The notes below the pieces were generated by a model, which was not told the origin of the DNA, did no database searches, and saw nothing but the letters and a program-made list of their open reading frames with translations. Below, piece by piece: positions 3 through 5,769 of a DNA stretch of 42,295 nucleotides (its first letter is position 1; every line of letters starts with the position of its first letter). The stretch comes from Anaerolineaceae bacterium (GTDB taxonomy: Bacteria > Chloroflexota > Anaerolineae > Anaerolineales > Anaerolineaceae). Location of the stretch: NCBI GenBank assembly GCA_002702705.1, contig PABH01000041.1:1-42295 (forward strand), written 5' to 3'. A program made the position numbers and the translations under genes.

Positions 3-869
3 GAACTGTACAAAGATGGGGTGCTGCAAACCAATGATGACCTGACCGATGAAAATGGAGCCGTGCTCTTTACCTTGAATGACGGTGTGTATCAATTTGC
101 AGCCAACCTCTCTGAGACCCGCTTCTGGAGTGAGACCTGCACCATGCCTGGCTGCAATGAACAGGAGATTGTCTTACCTGGTGGGCAGGGAGGTATTCAG
201 GAGACGATGGTCTCGTACGAATACGATGATCTCTACCGTCTGACGGAAGCCAACTATGACAACGGCTTGTACTTCCATTATGAATATGATGCGGTTGGTA
301 ACCGCCTGACCGAGACCACACAAACCAGCAGCACCAGTTATGCCTACGATATCGCCAATCGACCCAACGAAAAATGGGTGACTGATATTACCTATATCCC
401 AACCAATGAAGGCTGGTTATATTTGGCCGCTGTGATGGACTTGTTTTCGAGAAAGATCGTTGGTTGGAGTATGTCAGATTCAATTGATACCGACCTGGTT
501 GAAAATGCGCTTCGTATGGCTTTATATCAAAGAGAACCAGAAGCCGGTTTACTACACCACTCTGATCGTGGCAGCCAATATACAAGTCACCAGATTCGCA
601 AAATATTGGAGGCCAATAAAATCCAAATTAGCATGAGCCGGAAAGGTGAATGTCATGATAACGCAGTGATGGAAAGCTTTTTCGGTTCACTCAAATGTGA
701 ATGGCTTGGTTTCCAAACCTATAAAACACGGGCTGAGGCAAGACAAGATGTTTTCGCCTACATTGAAGGGTTTTATAATAAAATTAGGTTACACTCAACG
801 TTGGGATATTATTCCCCGGATAAGTTCGAGTTTCAGTATTATCAATCTCTTAATTCTGTGTCCATTTAA
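3..869 (+). CDS. Chimeric ORF: RHS/YD-repeat protein fragment fused in frame to the C-terminal half of an IS3-family transposase (5' partial)
   Basis: The reading frame is open from the window edge, so the 5' end is missing. The first ~115 codons encode YD-repeat sequence typical of RHS proteins (YEYDDLYRLTEA, YEYDAVGNRLTE, YAYDIANR). At about base 360 this switches without a frame break to IS3 OrfB sequence beginning PNEKWVTDITYI. Counting from the GTG at 21, the catalytic triad is D122 (TDIT), D182 (HSDRG) and E218 (MESFF), with 35 residues between the second D and the E, the classic DD(35)E. The N-terminal helix-turn-helix and OrfA are absent. I read this as an IS remnant that replaced the end of an RHS gene by deletion or recombination, or as an assembly join. 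A working fusion protein is unlikely. Confidence 0.75.
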   Translation, partial: ELYKDGVLQTNDDLTDENGAVLFTLNDGVYQFAANLSETRFWSETCTMPGCNEQEIVLPGGQGGIQETMVSYEYDDLYRLTEANYDNGLYFHYEYDAVGNRLTETTQTSSTSYAYDIANRPNEKWVTDITYIPTNEGWLYLAAVMDLFSRKIVGWSMSDSIDTDLVENALRMALYQREPEAGLLHHSDRGSQYTSHQIRKILEANKIQISMSRKGECHDNAVMESFFGSLKCEWLGFQTYKTRAEARQDVFAYIEGFYNKIRLHSTLGYYSPDKFEFQYYQSLNSVSI

Positions 870-883
870 TTAGGTCCACTCCA
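363..883 (+). mobile_element. 3' fragment of an IS3-family insertion sequence
   Basis: This fragment holds the DDE part of orfB and the right end of the element. The right terminus probably ends at TCCACTCCA near 883, because the neighbouring minus-strand gene changes character exactly there. The left end, orfA and the first half of orfB are missing, so the element cannot move by itself. The left junction is placed at about 357-366 from the switch from YD-repeat to transposase sequence. No target duplication can be assessed with one end missing. Confidence 0.7.
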
Positions 884-2729
884 CATCAATTGTTAAGATG
901 ATCTTAGTTCCATCCTCTGTTCCATCTGATTTCCAGATATGGAAATCGTTTGAAGAATCATCATAACTTGTAAAAAAAAGTTTATCTTTTGATTTAACGT
1001 ACTCAATAAATTCGAAATTAATGATACCAGTTTCATTATCTTGAACAATCCACTTATGATCAGAAAGTTGATCATAAGACCAAAGTCTATATTTGTTAAA
1101 ATCGTTTTGATCTTGTGATACATAAAAATAGTGCTGGTTGAGATAAATAAATGGAGGATTACCGCGATTATTAGAATCAATAATTATTTCCTGATCATCG
1201 ATGACAGTTTCGAGTTTATTTCCGTTGTTATGAATTCCCCAAAGATGACTATTTCCATTATCATCATTGGCAACAAAGTTTATTTCACCTTCATCTACCG
1301 ATAATCCAATTGGAGTAGCGCTACCTGGGTTTTTATTAATGTCCATCACAAGCTGTGTATTTTCTATGGATCCATCAGTACTCCATAACTCACGGCCATG
1401 AATGAAATCATTGACGCTAAAACACAACCGTTCTCCACAAATGCCATAACTTAATGGCTCCGAGCTGGCTGGTCCAGGTAAGATATCAAGCCAAAGAGCA
1501 GTTCCCTCAGGAGTTCCGTCAGAGCGCCACAATTCAACCCCATGATCTTTATCATATTTTGTAAAATAAAGATTATTTTCTAAAACTTCATACACTCTTT
1601 GTATTGAAGTATTGGAAGTGTTACGTACGAAATTAAGTTCAGTTAATACCACTGTGCCGTTAAGAGTTCCATCAGAAAAACAGATGGAATAATACCTGTC
1701 GCCTTCTAGTTTACATCGCAAAAATATACCTTCTGGCTGATTACCTGTTGACAGATTGATTGAGCCTAATGATTTATCGAAGATATAATCTCCTAATTGA
1801 ATTTTAAATGTTCCCTCAATAGTTCCATCGGTTCTCCAAAGATCATTATTTCCATCTTGGTTAGCGACATTTAGATATAAGAGTTCGTTTCCAATGCCAA
1901 TTATTTGAGGAGACCCATCACCTGATGGATTTAGATCCATAAACAGGCCTACTTCAATTTCACCATCTGTACGCCATAATTCGCTACCATGTTCACCATC
2001 CTTAGCAACAAAATACAAAAATCCATTAAAAACAACAAGTGGATTATTTTGAACGGAAATCTCACTAAAATTGAGTGCGGAAATGGTACCAAATCTCTTA
2101 AGTTCACATAAATCAATATTTTCACAATGAATATAATAGAGGGTATCACCAAATTTTGTGTTAACTGGAAGAGGTTCATCCCTTACCAGAATAGTTGAAA
2201 CTCCATCCGTTTTATAGAGTTTTGTGAATGGAAAACCAGCATTAAAATATAATAAATTATTAACTACACTGAAATTTGATGGATCAGCATAGTCAAGCTG
2301 AAAAACCTGAATAGTTCCTTCGGGGGAACCATCTGTTTTCCAAAGTTGAGAATCATTTACTGTTTGTTCATTACCGTTAAAATATATACTTTCATTAAAT
2401 TCAACAAACTCCACTAATTCGAAATTTACAGAAATAGGTCCCCGAAGATTTTCTTTTACCAAATTTGTACCTTCTGTTGTGCCATCAGTTTTCCACAGGC
2501 CATAGGCTTCCCCCATATCAGCTGAAAAATAAGCAATGTTTCCGTGTTGCATAAAACTTTCAGGGTTAGAACTTTCTGTTCCTGATTTAATATCCTCAAC
2601 CAAATACGCTTTATTAATTAATTTGGTGTCATTTCTTAGAGTTTGAAAAATTGGTTTTGAATGTACTGGATTAGTCAGAGATAACACTAATATAAAAAAA
2701 CCTAATCGCCATTTCCAGAATTTTTTCAT
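870..2729 (-). CDS. Secreted ELWxxDGT-repeat protein, 3' end truncated by IS3
   Basis: The product has 619 residues and begins with a signal peptide (MKKFWKWRLGFFILVLSL, then VHSKP). The start at 2729 is preferred because a GGAG lies six bases upstream and the signal peptide follows; an in-frame start at 2807 would add a non-hydrophobic leader. About eleven repeats of roughly 50-60 residues carry the motif [ED]LW[KR]TDGTxEGT, for example GLWKTDGTTEGT, ELWRSDGTPEGT and HIWKSDGTEDGT; several are degenerate (KLYKTDGV, SICFSDGT, RLWSYDQL). Proteins of this repeat family are exported and thought to fold as beta-propeller-like surface proteins; substrate unknown. The last four residues (VEWT) and the stop lie inside the IS3 terminus, so the native C-terminus is lost. 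A+T content is high. Confidence 0.8.
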   Translation of the reverse strand: MKKFWKWRLGFFILVLSLTNPVHSKPIFQTLRNDTKLINKAYLVEDIKSGTESSNPESFMQHGNIAYFSADMGEAYGLWKTDGTTEGTNLVKENLRGPISVNFELVEFVEFNESIYFNGNEQTVNDSQLWKTDGSPEGTIQVFQLDYADPSNFSVVNNLLYFNAGFPFTKLYKTDGVSTILVRDEPLPVNTKFGDTLYYIHCENIDLCELKRFGTISALNFSEISVQNNPLVVFNGFLYFVAKDGEHGSELWRTDGEIEVGLFMDLNPSGDGSPQIIGIGNELLYLNVANQDGNNDLWRTDGTIEGTFKIQLGDYIFDKSLGSINLSTGNQPEGIFLRCKLEGDRYYSICFSDGTLNGTVVLTELNFVRNTSNTSIQRVYEVLENNLYFTKYDKDHGVELWRSDGTPEGTALWLDILPGPASSEPLSYGICGERLCFSVNDFIHGRELWSTDGSIENTQLVMDINKNPGSATPIGLSVDEGEINFVANDDNGNSHLWGIHNNGNKLETVIDDQEIIIDSNNRGNPPFIYLNQHYFYVSQDQNDFNKYRLWSYDQLSDHKWIVQDNETGIINFEFIEYVKSKDKLFFTSYDDSSNDFHIWKSDGTEDGTKIILTIDVEWT

Positions 2730-2854
2730 TACACACTCCAAAGAAATTGATTTTCTAGGGTTACCCCCTTGCTTGACAATTTTTTCACAGTTTTGGGGAC
2801 AAGTCAACTTAATAAACTGAAAAAGTTTTTAGTAGATCTTTTTTATGAGATATT

Positions 2855-2922: not shown

Positions 2923-3267
2923 CTACTGAAGACGAAGCAGAACTTTTCCTTCTTGCCATAGTTCTTCTAATTGGTAATAATCCCGCTGTTCTGGTGAAAA
3001 CAGGTGACAGACTACATCGCCTAAATCCAAAACAACCCAACCGGAATCAGCATCGCCTTCCGGTTGACTTACAATTCTAAATTCCTGCTTTACCTCGTCT
3101 TTTATTTCTTTTGCTAAAGCGTCGAGCATCCGGTTACTTGTTCCAGTGCAAAAAACAAAATAATCTGCAAAGGAAGCTACATCAACAACATCAATCAATA
3201 AAATATCTTCGCCCTTTTTTTCTTCCAATTTATTGACCACAAATCGGGCTATTTCTATATTATCCAG
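2923..3267 (-). CDS. rsfS: Ribosomal silencing factor RsfS (YbeB/Iojap family)
   Basis: RsfS binds uL14 on the large ribosomal subunit and blocks subunit joining when nutrients are short. The core reads EEKKGEDILLIDV, then FADYFVFCTGTSNR, GWVVLDLGDVVCHLF and Y-x-LEELW, which covers the whole domain. The first GTG in the frame (3240) has no ribosome-binding site and would cut off the family's first helix. Extending upstream gives LDNIEIARFV, matching the usual N-terminus, and a strong GAGGTGA lies just before a CTG at 3265-3267. I therefore set the start at CTG, giving 114 residues, which fits the family. A terminator follows. thpR lies upstream on the same strand with a 70-base gap. Confidence 0.9.
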   Translation of the reverse strand: MDNIEIARFVVNKLEEKKGEDILLIDVVDVASFADYFVFCTGTSNRMLDALAKEIKDEVKQEFRIVSQPEGDADSGWVVLDLGDVVCHLFSPEQRDYYQLEELWQEGKVLLRLQ

Positions 3268-3337
3268 ATTTCACCTCTTTAATTATTTAAAAATTGCTAT
3301 TTTTACCGTAAAAAAGTTATACTGAATCATACCATGG

Positions 3338-3901
3338 TTAATCAATAAATCGTATGGCTGTATAAAGCGGTCCTTGGGGGGGTAAAACCGATTTATAAAT
3401 TGTAACCCCTGTGATATTAAACGTGAGCGGTGGAACGGTTGTACTCGTTTTAAGTGTGGAAGAAATTTGTTTTATTTGTTCTTGATTTATCCCACGCTTT
3501 AACCGAGCCAAAGTGATGTGGGTTTTAAAAGGTTTCTGATCTGGTTCAAATCCCTCGGTAATACAGATCGTTTCTATCTTATTGAATGTTATTAATAATT
3601 CATCTTTTGGAAAAACATCGATCCAAATAACATTGGGTCTCGATATGTTTGGAAAAGCACCAAGTGTTGAAAGAGTTACTGTGATTGGTTTAATGGGGTG
3701 AAGATTTTTTTTTATTTTTTCAGATAATAAATCCACTTTTTCAGGAGTTGTCTCTCCCAGAAATTTCAATGTGATATGAAAATTATCCGGATCTACCCAT
3801 TTTAAAACGGACTTAAAAGCAGGCTGCTGCAAAGGTTTCCGAAAGTTTGATATTTCTGTTTTTATTTTTGGAGGTAAGTCAAATGCAATAAATGCCCGCA
3901 T
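3338..3901 (-). CDS. thpR: RNA 2',3'-cyclic phosphodiesterase (LigT/ThpR, 2H phosphoesterase)
   Basis: The enzyme opens 2',3'-cyclic phosphates on RNA ends and can join tRNA half-molecules in vitro. Both catalytic HxTx motifs are present: FHITLKF near residue 42 and THITLAR near residue 127, separated as in the 2H superfamily. The N-terminus MRAFIAFDLP is typical, so I start at ATG 3901; an upstream in-frame TTG at 3913 overlaps the stop of the preceding lipoprotein gene and has no usable spacing to its AGGA. The product is 187 residues, the normal family size. It follows the copper-chaperone lipoprotein gene by only 8 bases, so the two are probably cotranscribed. Confidence 0.9.
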   Translation of the reverse strand: MRAFIAFDLPPKIKTEISNFRKPLQQPAFKSVLKWVDPDNFHITLKFLGETTPEKVDLLSEKIKKNLHPIKPITVTLSTLGAFPNISRPNVIWIDVFPKDELLITFNKIETICITEGFEPDQKPFKTHITLARLKRGINQEQIKQISSTLKTSTTVPPLTFNITGVTIYKSVLPPQGPLYTAIRFID

Positions 3902-3909
3902 TCGCAGTG

Positions 3910-4365
3910 TCAATCCTGTTCTTTTACAGGAACTGTGATGGTAATTGTTCCGGCTTTTTCAAACTGTAATGTCAATTGATATTCATCACCAATATTCAAA
4001 TCATTTAAAAGATTAATGAACATAATATGGTAATCTTTTGGTTTAAATTCAACACTACTTTGGGCTGGTATTTCAACAAAGTCTTGCTGCTGCATCATCA
4101 TTTTGCCATCTTGCATCACACTGAGGTGAACTTCTGTAAATTCTGCAATCGTACTTGATGCACTTAACAAACGATCATTTTCATTTAGTGGGTTGTTGAT
4201 TGTGAAATAAGCAGCGGTATTATTCCCTGATAATGCAGGTCGACTCCAACCGTCTTTAACATTGAGTTCTTTAACGCTATTGCAGGAACTTAATAGTGAT
4301 ATTAACAAACTACTCAAGAAAAATAATCTTAATATTTTTTGTTTTAGTAATGGTTGTTTTTTCAT
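3910..4365 (-). CDS. PCu(A)C-domain copper chaperone lipoprotein
   Basis: The product has 151 residues. It starts MKKQPLLKQKIL, with a hydrophobic stretch ending in LLSSC, a lipobox; the cysteine at about residue 28 would be lipidated. The mature part has the PCu(A)C pattern: EVHLSVMQDGKMMM followed by IPA and later KDYHIMFINL, giving the His/Met ligands for Cu(I). Family members carry copper in the periplasm or outside the membrane, often to cytochrome oxidase; no oxidase gene is visible here. Start chosen at 4365 because GGAGGG precedes it; an upstream in-frame ATG would add a leader without signal features. A candidate promoter lies at 4394-4422. Confidence 0.85.
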   Translation of the reverse strand: MKKQPLLKQKILRLFFLSSLLISLLSSCNSVKELNVKDGWSRPALSGNNTAAYFTINNPLNENDRLLSASSTIAEFTEVHLSVMQDGKMMMQQQDFVEIPAQSSVEFKPKDYHIMFINLLNDLNIGDEYQLTLQFEKAGTITITVPVKEQD

Positions 4366-4393
4366 TTTCCCTCCGAGGATAATAATAAAATTA

Positions 4394-4422
4394 AGTATAT
4401 TTTTTTGAAAGTTTGACCGCAA
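4394..4422 (-). promoter_or_regulatory. Candidate sigma-70 promoter for the PCu(A)C-thpR genes
   Basis: On the minus strand, TTGCGG (4417-4422) is followed after 17 bases by TATACT (4394-4399). Predicted transcription start is near 4387, about 22 bases before the ATG, leaving room for the GGAGGG ribosome-binding site. Confidence 0.5.
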
Positions 4423-4457
4423 GGAATAAAGGTTGTACGAAGAATAATTATGGATAT

Positions 4458-4469
4458 TTCCACGTGGAA
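4458..4469. promoter_or_regulatory. Perfect 12-bp palindrome, possible operator
   Basis: TTCCACGTGGAA is self-complementary across all 12 bases. It sits between the divergent PCu(A)C promoter and the 6S RNA promoter, 36 bases from the nearer -35 box. A dimeric regulator could bind here, but none is identified. Confidence 0.3.
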
Positions 4470-4561
4470 GTGTAATTTTGTATTGGATTCCAAATTTTAC
4501 TTGATGAAAATCTAGGCAATGAAACTATCTAAAATTATCAATTTTGTAAACAATAATTAAT

Positions 4562-4591
4562 CTGTACAACCCATATTTCTTATGGTATAAA
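4562..4591 (+). promoter_or_regulatory. Candidate promoter of the 6S-like RNA
   Basis: CTGTAC (4562-4567) and TATAAA (4586-4591) are separated by 18 bases, with an upstream TGG extending the -10 box. The predicted start at about 4598-4600 coincides with the 5' strand of the RNA's long terminal stem. Confidence 0.5.
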
Positions 4592-4598
4592 ATAATTA

Positions 4599-4778
4599 CC
4601 CTACTATATACGTGATGTCTGCACTACAGGTTTTGAGCCAACACTTTAATTATGGGGTTCAATTACCTCGTGCGTACGCGATAGGCCTGAGCCAAGGCGG
4701 AAACACAGGTGCGACTCCCGAAACCTGCTTTTAGCAGGTTCAAAACTTCGCAGCACACGGTATGGTGGGGGCTTTTTT
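4599..4778 (+). ncRNA. ssrS: Probable 6S RNA (SsrS)
   Basis: This ~180-base stretch lacks a good coding frame and folds like 6S RNA. Its 5' end (CCTACTATATACGTG, near 4600-4615) can pair with its 3' end (CACGGTATGGTGGGG, near 4756-4770) as an imperfect terminal stem. The interior holds CCTGAGCC and a small hairpin AACCTGC-TTTTA-GCAGGTT followed by CAAAA, the arrangement I associate with the 3' side of the 6S central bubble. A T-run (4773-4779) ends it. 6S RNA mimics open promoter DNA and sequesters sigma-70 RNA polymerase in stationary phase. Identification is from structure and short motifs only; another structured RNA is possible. Confidence 0.6.
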
Positions 4779-4806
4779 TAAGGTAAAAAGGAGTGGGGGC
4801 TTTCAC

Positions 4807-4835
4807 TTGACCTATAATTTAAAAGAGACCATAAT
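4807..4835 (+). promoter_or_regulatory. Candidate promoter for the ChbG/YdjC-like gene
   Basis: TTGACC (4807-4812) and CATAAT (4830-4835) are spaced by exactly 17 bases. Predicted start is near 4842, 22 bases before the ATG at 4864. Confidence 0.5.
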
Positions 4836-4863
4836 TCATTTAGATTATGAAACGAGGTGGAGT

Positions 4864-5769
4864 ATGTTGCCAAATCCGGCTTTGAGGCGATTGGGTTATT
4901 CAAATCAAGATCGTGTTGTGATCATCCATGCTGATGATATTGGGATGTGTCAGGCATCTGTTGAAGCGTATGCTGATTTGTTTGCCTGTGGTGGTATTAC
5001 TTCAGGAGCAGTGATGGTGCCATGTTCCTGGTTCCCTGCCGCTGCGGCTTTACAAACTCGTTTTCCCAAGGCGGATTTGGGGGTACACCTCACATTAACT
5101 AGTGAATGGCGATCTTATCGTTGGGGTGCCATTTCTACCCGTGATCCCAAAAGTGGATTATTAGATGATTTAGGATATTTTCCAGCGACCTCACAACAAG
5201 TTCAAACTAATGCAGATCCGGGTTATGTCTTCACAGAAATGGCAGCTCAAGTAAATCGTGCGATTCAGGCTGGAATCAATCCAACACATATTGACACTCA
5301 TATGGGTACCGTTGCTCATCCAAAATTTATGTTAGATTATTTGCATTTAGCAGTTCAGAATAGAATTCCTGCAATGATGTTTCGGATGGATGAAAAGGGA
5401 TGGCTGGAGGCTGGAGTAGACTCCGACACTGCCAAACAAGCATCTTTGCTAATTCAGAGCCTTGAAGCGCAATCTGTACCGTTATTGGATCATTTAAGAT
5501 CGATGCCATTAAAATCGCCAAATGATCGATTTGAGACAGCAAAACAAATTTTTTCCGATTTGCCATCAGGAATCACACATTTTATTATTCATCCATCTAA
5601 AGACAGCCCAGAACTAAGGGCAATCGCTGACGATTGGGCTTGTCGGGTTGAGGATTACGAACTGTTTAAAACCAAACAAATGCAGAATTTTTTGAAATCT
5701 GAAGGTATCCAATTAATTGGGTACCATGCATTGGCGAAAATTATGCCGGAAAAAGTGATTGATTTTTAG
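4864..5769 (+). CDS. ChbG/HpnK (YdjC)-family carbohydrate deacetylase
   Basis: YdjC-family proteins are metal-dependent deacetylases of N-acetylated sugars such as chitooligosaccharides. Key motifs are VVIIHADDIGM (metal Asp pair) near residue 20, DLGVHLTLTSEW near 80, NPTHIDTHMGT (HxD ligand) near 140 and HFIIHPS near 240. The product is 301 residues, a normal length. Start set at 4864: GAGGTGGAG precedes it and the family N-terminus follows soon after, whereas an in-frame start at 4762 would lie inside the structured RNA. There is no sugar-uptake gene beside it, so the true substrate cannot be read from context. The FHA gene follows 59 bases later with its own ribosome-binding site. Confidence 0.85.
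   Translation: MLPNPALRRLGYSNQDRVVIIHADDIGMCQASVEAYADLFACGGITSGAVMVPCSWFPAAAALQTRFPKADLGVHLTLTSEWRSYRWGAISTRDPKSGLLDDLGYFPATSQQVQTNADPGYVFTEMAAQVNRAIQAGINPTHIDTHMGTVAHPKFMLDYLHLAVQNRIPAMMFRMDEKGWLEAGVDSDTAKQASLLIQSLEAQSVPLLDHLRSMPLKSPNDRFETAKQIFSDLPSGITHFIIHPSKDSPELRAIADDWACRVEDYELFKTKQMQNFLKSEGIQLIGYHALAKIMPEKVIDF

What the first reader, a model, noticed from the sequence alone, without database searches (positions are those of the whole stretch)
4562..4779. Probable 6S RNA with its own promoter and terminator
A non-coding ~180-base unit is bracketed by a promoter and a T-run and has a long terminal stem, CCTGAGCC, and a small hairpin followed by CAAAA, as 6S RNAs do. It would be the transcriptional brake for stationary phase in this lineage. 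A frame running into it from the ChbG-like gene should not be annotated as coding.
Basis: partly seen in the sequence, partly recalled or inferred. Interest (0 to 1): 0.5.

Follow-up and report, generated by a model that had tools for sequence, protein, structure and literature searches.

The report
6S RNA gene of an Anaerolineaceae bacterium
The stretch encodes a normal 6S RNA, the small RNA that bacteria use to hold RNA polymerase in check, here in a little-studied Chloroflexota bacterium; it is well supported but an expected kind of gene.

Summary
The finding is right: window 4595-4775 (+) matches Rfam 6S (RF00013) in full, 56.9 bits against a cut-off of 46.4, the only match in this genome, an Anaerolineaceae by its relatives. 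54 of 61 genomes, own included, have a match. In 51 aligned RNAs 94.3% of cells pair and 29 of 51 pairs change on both sides (shuffles 14.9). An extended -10 element precedes all 51; a T-run follows. The template predicts a pRNA GUUGGCUCAAAACC, close to that of B. subtilis 6S-1; blocking the template in silico lengthens a 3' bubble hairpin, as in E. coli. One cue was misplaced: CCTGAGCC is the apical loop; the counterpart is TTTTGAGCC, 4631-4639. Clade features: a fixed apical internal loop, and a place beside thpR-rsfS in 29 of 35 family loci. New member of a known kind; 6S in Chloroflexi is already in print (PMC7726162, citing Wehner 2014). Expression, polymerase binding and pRNAs are untested.

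The parts
4563..4568 (+). weak -35-like hexamer TGTACA
   Evidence: sequence; CTnnnCA weakly conserved at this place in the 51 aligned loci
4583..4591 (+). extended -10 promoter element TGG-TATAAA
   Evidence: TGnTA in 51 of 51 aligned loci (TGGTATAAR in 43 of 51) against 5.9% in shuffled flanks
4595..4775 (+). 6S RNA (Rfam RF00013 match); transcript start inferred near 4598
   Evidence: 56.9 bits, gathering 46.4, E 7.8e-9 for the window; clade model R1 158.1 bits (the model includes this sequence)
4599..4622 (+). 5' strand of closing (terminal) stem
   Evidence: helix 1, 95.9% of cells paired, 10 of 21 pairs with change on both sides
4628..4639 (+). 5' strand of helix P2 next to the central bubble (AGGTTTTGAGCC)
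   Evidence: helix 2, 98.4% of cells paired
4629..4642 (+). predicted pRNA template; pRNA 5'-GUUGGCUCAAAACC, start opposite C4642
   Evidence: likeness to B. subtilis pRNA 5'-GUUCGGUCAAAACUA (passage of PMC12005410); inference
4640..4653 (+). 5' side of central bubble
   Evidence: unpaired in the fold; its first letters AACA are invariant in 51
4676..4701 (+). apical hairpin with internal loop GAUA / AAG
   Evidence: six of the seven loop columns identical in 51 of 51, flanking pairs covary
4722..4740 (+). 3' central-bubble hairpin, 8 bp when the pRNA template is blocked
   Evidence: six core pairs 95.1% formed in 51 sequences; constrained fold
4737..4748 (+). 3' strand of helix P2 (GGTTCAAAACTT), overlapping the hairpin's 3' arm
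4750..4770 (+). 3' strand of closing stem
4773..4779 (+). T-run, probable 3' end/terminator together with the closing stem
   Evidence: run of 4 or more T within 14 bases of the stem in 35 of 51
4864..5769 (+). YdjC/ChbG-like gene, separate from the RNA (likely start 4864, not 4762)
   Evidence: PF04794; congeners align from about residue 1 of this start
2923..3913 (-). rsfS (2923-3240) and thpR/ligT-like gene (3338-3913), conserved neighbours of the 6S gene in the family

Best explanation
The locus is the single-copy 6S RNA (ssrS) gene of an Anaerolineaceae bacterium. A housekeeping-sigma promoter with extended -10 makes an RNA of about 175-182 nt that folds into a rod: closing stem, helix P2, open central bubble, apical arm. 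It mimics an open promoter, so it should bind the primary-sigma RNA polymerase holoenzyme and keep it from DNA promoters when growth stops. When nucleotides return, the polymerase copies the bubble's 5' strand from C4642, making a GTP-started pRNA (GUUGGCUCAAAACC...). The pRNA opens P2; the freed GGU of the 3' strand completes a hairpin in the 3' central bubble, and the RNA is released. Shown by computation: family membership, structure, promoter and terminator signals, the hairpin's growth in silico. Inferred from E. coli and B. subtilis: polymerase binding, pRNA synthesis, release, growth-phase role.
For: Rfam match over the full model above cut-off; one copy; matches in 54 of 61 genomes, own included, 50 over cut-off. 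51 sequences: 94.3% of cells paired, 29 pairs with both-side changes vs 14.9 in shuffles (0 of 500), slid controls 36.5-42.6% paired. Fold z -4.13. Promoter in 51 of 51. With the 13-nt template blocked (which forbids P2 by construction) the hairpin's outer pairs exceed 0.5 probability in 49 of 51, against 22 of 51 free; the E. coli 6S control gives its known 9-bp hairpin (described in passages of PMC8876501). The predicted pRNA resembles B. subtilis GUUCGGUCAAAACUA (passage of PMC12005410).
Against: No expression or binding data. The Rfam score is the lowest in its genus (56.9 against 75.1-79.5 in seven congeners), and identity to them is 69-75%, while they share 76-99%. The 3' bubble hairpin shows no covariation beyond shuffles (145 of 500 reach its pairing, 295 of 500 its covariation score), as its arms hardly vary. 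P2 exceeds 0.5 mean probability in the free RNA in only 39 of 51. The pRNA start is by analogy only.
Confidence: 0.95

Rival explanations
1. A cis-acting leader or attenuator of the YdjC/ChbG-like gene that follows, not a free-standing RNA.
For: It lies 89 bases before that gene's start, and the gene follows the RNA in 9 of 35 family loci, among them 8 of 8 of the genus.
Against: In 26 of 35 family loci no homologue of that gene is found in the flank held (4 kb as a rule, 663 bases in G009), yet the RNA is there. A T-run ends the RNA, and a TATAAT lies between RNA and gene in all six congeners that I aligned, of seven. In the window TTGACC-17-CATAAT scores 10 of 12, but such hits are near the shuffled mean.
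Confidence: 0.03
2. An Ms1-like RNA that binds core RNA polymerase rather than sigma-bound holoenzyme.
For: Ms1 is structurally related to 6S RNA (abstract of PMC9130861), and no binding data exist here.
Against: The 6S model matches in full and no other family is listed at E <= 1. The CCAACA template segment is invariant in 51 and P2 is 98.4% paired, as expected of a pRNA template. No Ms1 model was run on its own, and I did not check that Rfam holds one.
Confidence: 0.02
3. A decayed 6S copy without function.
For: Lowest Rfam score and lowest identity in the genus.
Against: It is the only copy found; the fold is stable (z -4.13); promoter, T-run and template segment are intact; clade model 158.1 bits (sequence in the training set).
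Confidence: 0.02

Closest known systems
6S RNA of E. coli (ssrS), Rfam RF00013
   Same: Size, rod shape, central bubble with template strand, and a 3' bubble hairpin that grows when the template is blocked (8 bp in the window RNA, 9 bp in E. coli, control from NC_000913.3 3055983-3056165). In both free folds a short inner hairpin is predicted.
   Different: Predicted pRNA starts with G; in E. coli the start is at U44, so A. Neighbour genes differ (zapA and fau in E. coli).
6S-1 RNA of Bacillus subtilis
   Same: Predicted pRNA GUUGGCUCAAAACC against 5'-GUUCGGUCAAAACUA, GTP start; a short 3' bubble hairpin in the free RNA (passages of PMC12005410 and PMC8876501).
   Different: No central bubble collapse helix appears in the constrained minimum-energy fold of the window RNA; one 6S gene found, not two.
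6S RNAs of other Anaerolineales
   Same: 51 aligned: same promoter type, structure and GAUA/AAG apical loop.
   Different: The window copy is the most diverged of its genus.

Membership tests
6S RNA (RF00013) | Covariance-model score over the curated cut-off, full length | tested here: met
   56.9 vs 46.4 bits, positions 1-187 of 187
6S RNA (RF00013) | Length of about 150-240 nt (153-237 bp range given in a passage of PMC7726162) | tested here: met
   about 175-182 nt between inferred start 4598 and T-run 4773-4779
6S RNA (RF00013) | Rod with closing stem, central bubble and apical arm, kept by compensatory change | tested here: met
6S RNA (RF00013) | Conserved pRNA template at the 5' side of the bubble | tested here: met
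   CCAACA invariant in 51; 23 of 51 share the exact 14-mer
6S RNA (RF00013) | pRNA-driven refolding | tested here: inconclusive
   hairpin growth predicted in silico in 49 of 51; hairpin lacks covariation
6S RNA (RF00013) | Own promoter and discrete transcript | tested here: inconclusive
   promoter in 51 of 51, T-run in 35 of 51; transcript not testable
6S RNA (RF00013) | Binds primary-sigma RNA polymerase and templates pRNA | not testable with these tools
   needs biochemistry
6S RNA (RF00013) | Accumulates in stationary phase | not testable with these tools
   needs RNA-seq or northern blot
Ms1 RNA | Binds core polymerase without sigma | not testable with these tools
   no dedicated model run; only 6S listed at E <= 1

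The most novel reading that the evidence does not exclude
In Anaerolineae the 6S RNA carries a fixed apical recognition element (GAUA/AAG internal loop between covarying stems) read by a lineage-specific surface of the polymerase or another protein, and its gene is kept beside rsfS, so that the RNA-polymerase brake and the ribosome-silencing factor form one dormancy locus under shared control.
Probability: 0.1. Interest if true: 0.5.

Novelty: new member of a known kind. Interest (0 to 1): 0.22.

Why it matters
It gives a clean annotation of a global regulator in a group with few cultured members (the latter from general knowledge), corrects the likely start of the neighbouring YdjC/ChbG gene, and supplies an exact pRNA prediction that small-RNA data can test. 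The fixed apical loop and the conserved place next to rsfS give two concrete leads on lineage-specific 6S biology.

Tried and rejected
The scanner for promoters and terminators found neither the 6S promoter nor the terminator: its rules (T at the last -10 base; loop of 3-8) exclude both, so it is not evidence against them. Its hit at 4807-4835 may serve ydjC, but such hits are near the shuffled mean (3 found, 2.0 expected).

A central bubble collapse helix, as in B. subtilis, was not seen in the constrained minimum-energy fold of the window RNA; the other 50 were not checked for it. Matching the apical GAUA/AAG loop to a named tertiary motif (sarcin-ricin, kink-turn, tetraloop receptor) was considered from recall and did not fit; no tool was run. 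Rfam aligns this part to its own consensus, which has a conserved AA there, so it is probably a clade-fixed form of a general feature rather than a new domain.

Distribution: Rfam found 6S in 60 of 251 phylum genomes, the clade model R1 in 54 of 251, both with strict filters. Misses are not taken as proof of absence. Of the seven relatives without an Rfam match, R1 gave one in G044, G045 and G055, none in G027, G029, G042, G057. Rfam at E <= 0.1 supports G055 (L150, 40.2 bits, cut by an end) and weakly G044 (L154, 32.3 bits, with weak Thr_leader matches next to it), not G045 (L153) nor the class member G246 (L151); L152 was not given to that scan.

Rows dropped: alignment A1 holds 51 of the 54 matches. 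The three left out (G046, G058, G052) are the three weakest. Fetched later, two of three have the strict apical motif and G058 a variant by eye; a TGGTA element stands before two of three, not before G058. In the neighbour survey I gave 34 family loci and the window, and six loci from other families, of the 19 other-family genomes with a match.

Papers: Wehner 2014 and Barrick 2005 are not held. Passages on 6S RNA were also seen in PMC4227106 (Aquificales) and PMC11431127 and not used. Searches '6S RNA' with 'Chloroflexi', 'Anaerolineae' (none), 'Chloroflexus', 'RsfS' and neighbourhood words listed no paper that, by title or start of abstract, treats 6S RNA of this class or a 6S-rsfS locus; that is a statement on this library and these listings only.

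Full report
What is there. Window 4595-4775 (+) matches Rfam family RF00013 (6S/SsrS RNA) over its whole length, 56.9 bits against a gathering score of 46.4 and E 7.8e-9 for the window. In a permissive scan of 4300-5000 it is the only family at E <= 1. The genome (5,885,093 bases, 74 contigs) has this one match at E <= 0.001.

More than chance. The RNA folds to -66.2 kcal/mol, z -4.13, no shuffle of 200 as stable. I aligned the window RNA with 50 relatives (A1; 51 of the 54 matches). On the RNAalifold structure, 94.3% of cells are standard pairs (shuffles 87.3%), 29 of 51 pairs have a change on both sides (shuffles 14.9, 0 of 500 as high), and sliding partners by 1-3 columns drops pairing to 36.5-42.6%. 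The structure was derived from the same alignment, which favours it somewhat, and shuffles ignore relatedness; the covariation counts are the stronger evidence.

Promoter and end. An extended -10 element TGG-TATAAA lies at 4583-4591, with TGTACA 17 bases upstream. TGnTA stands at a fitting distance before the closing stem in 51 of 51 (TGGTATAAR in 43), against 5.9% for shuffled flanks. This puts the start near A4598, one base before the closing stem (inference). A run of seven T follows the closing stem in the window, and a run of four or more in 35 of 51, so the closing stem may double as terminator stem (inference).

The terminal stem, and the hairpin followed by CAAAA, are right. CCTGAGCC (4686-4693) is not the signature it was taken for: it forms the apical stem-loop. 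The counterpart of E. coli CCUGAGCCGAU is TTTTGAGCCAAC at 4631-4642 (alignment; E. coli sequence). The warning about the coding frame is right: the mechanical ORF starts at 4762 inside the RNA, while proteins of congeners align from the ATG at 4864.

How it would work. The 14 bases ending at C4642 predict a pRNA 5'-GUUGGCUCAAAACC. B. subtilis 6S-1 pRNA is 5'-GUUCGGUCAAAACUA (passage of PMC12005410). When 13 template bases are kept unpaired, as if copied, P2 is excluded by construction and the 3' bubble hairpin extends: its outer pairs exceed 0.5 probability in 49 of 51 RNAs against 22 of 51 in the free state. The same run on E. coli 6S gives a 9-bp hairpin, as described in passages of PMC8876501. 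So release is predicted to be E. coli-like, with a B. subtilis-like pRNA start. The hairpin is conserved (95.1% of cells paired, slid versions 19.9-45.1%) but gives no covariation signal.

Clade features. The apical arm holds an internal loop GAUA/AAG; six of its seven columns are identical in 51 of 51, and the pairs beside it change in step (13 and 5 sequences with both sides changed at two of them). The strict motif is in 51 of 51 of A1 and 2 of 3 of the dropped rows. Among the 20 class- and phylum-level loci it is in none; among ten further loci tested in the same script it is in four (L150 and L153 of the order, L151 and L152 of the class), all four found with model R1, which itself holds the motif; looser forms occur by eye in L142, L146 and L199. 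The motif does not recur elsewhere in the 42-kb window. In the family, thpR and rsfS lie on the other strand upstream: rsfS in 29 of 35 (34 loci and the window), thpR in 30 of 35; of the six without rsfS one (G025) has only 36 bases held on that side. None of six loci from other families has them, one of these (G037) with only 661 bases upstream. YdjC follows in 9 of 35. RsfS is a ribosomal silencing factor of starvation (Pfam name), so the nearness of two dormancy brakes is suggestive, but shared descent explains it as well.

Distribution. 54 of 61 genomes of the order, own included; 60 of 251 across the phylum with Rfam and 54 of 251 with the clade model, strict filters in all three. G027, same family and 97% complete, has none by either model: loss, divergence or an assembly gap.

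Verdict. An ordinary, well-supported 6S RNA. 6S in Chloroflexi is in print: a passage of PMC7726162 credits Wehner et al. 2014, which I could not read.

Noticed in passing
window 21-869 (+): An ORF whose first part resembles RHS repeats (PF05593) and whose second part is an integrase core (PF00665): looks like an insertion element that entered an RHS-type gene, or a rearranged contig end.
   Followed up: no
window 870-2807 (-): A 645-aa protein with repeated LWRTDG-like stretches and no Pfam match; it lies between the integrase-like ORF and rsfS.
   Followed up: no
window 2923-3913 (-) and loci L155-L188: rsfS-thpR sits divergently next to the 6S gene in 29 of 35 Anaerolineaceae loci, window included.
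   Followed up: partly
G137 (L195, L196): One class-level relative has two 6S candidates on different contigs (51.8 and 33.5 bits).
   Followed up: no
L153 1-159 (-): A T-box leader match (61.6 bits, below its cut-off of 93, cut at a locus end) near the weak 6S candidate of G045.
   Followed up: no
L058, L072, L075, L091: YdjC/ChbG-like relatives at 38-48% identity in contigs labelled Treponema, Rhodobiaceae, Alphaproteobacteria and Aerococcus: wide spread of this protein, perhaps by transfer.
   Followed up: no
G027: A 97% complete member of the same family without a 6S match by Rfam or the clade model.
   Followed up: partly
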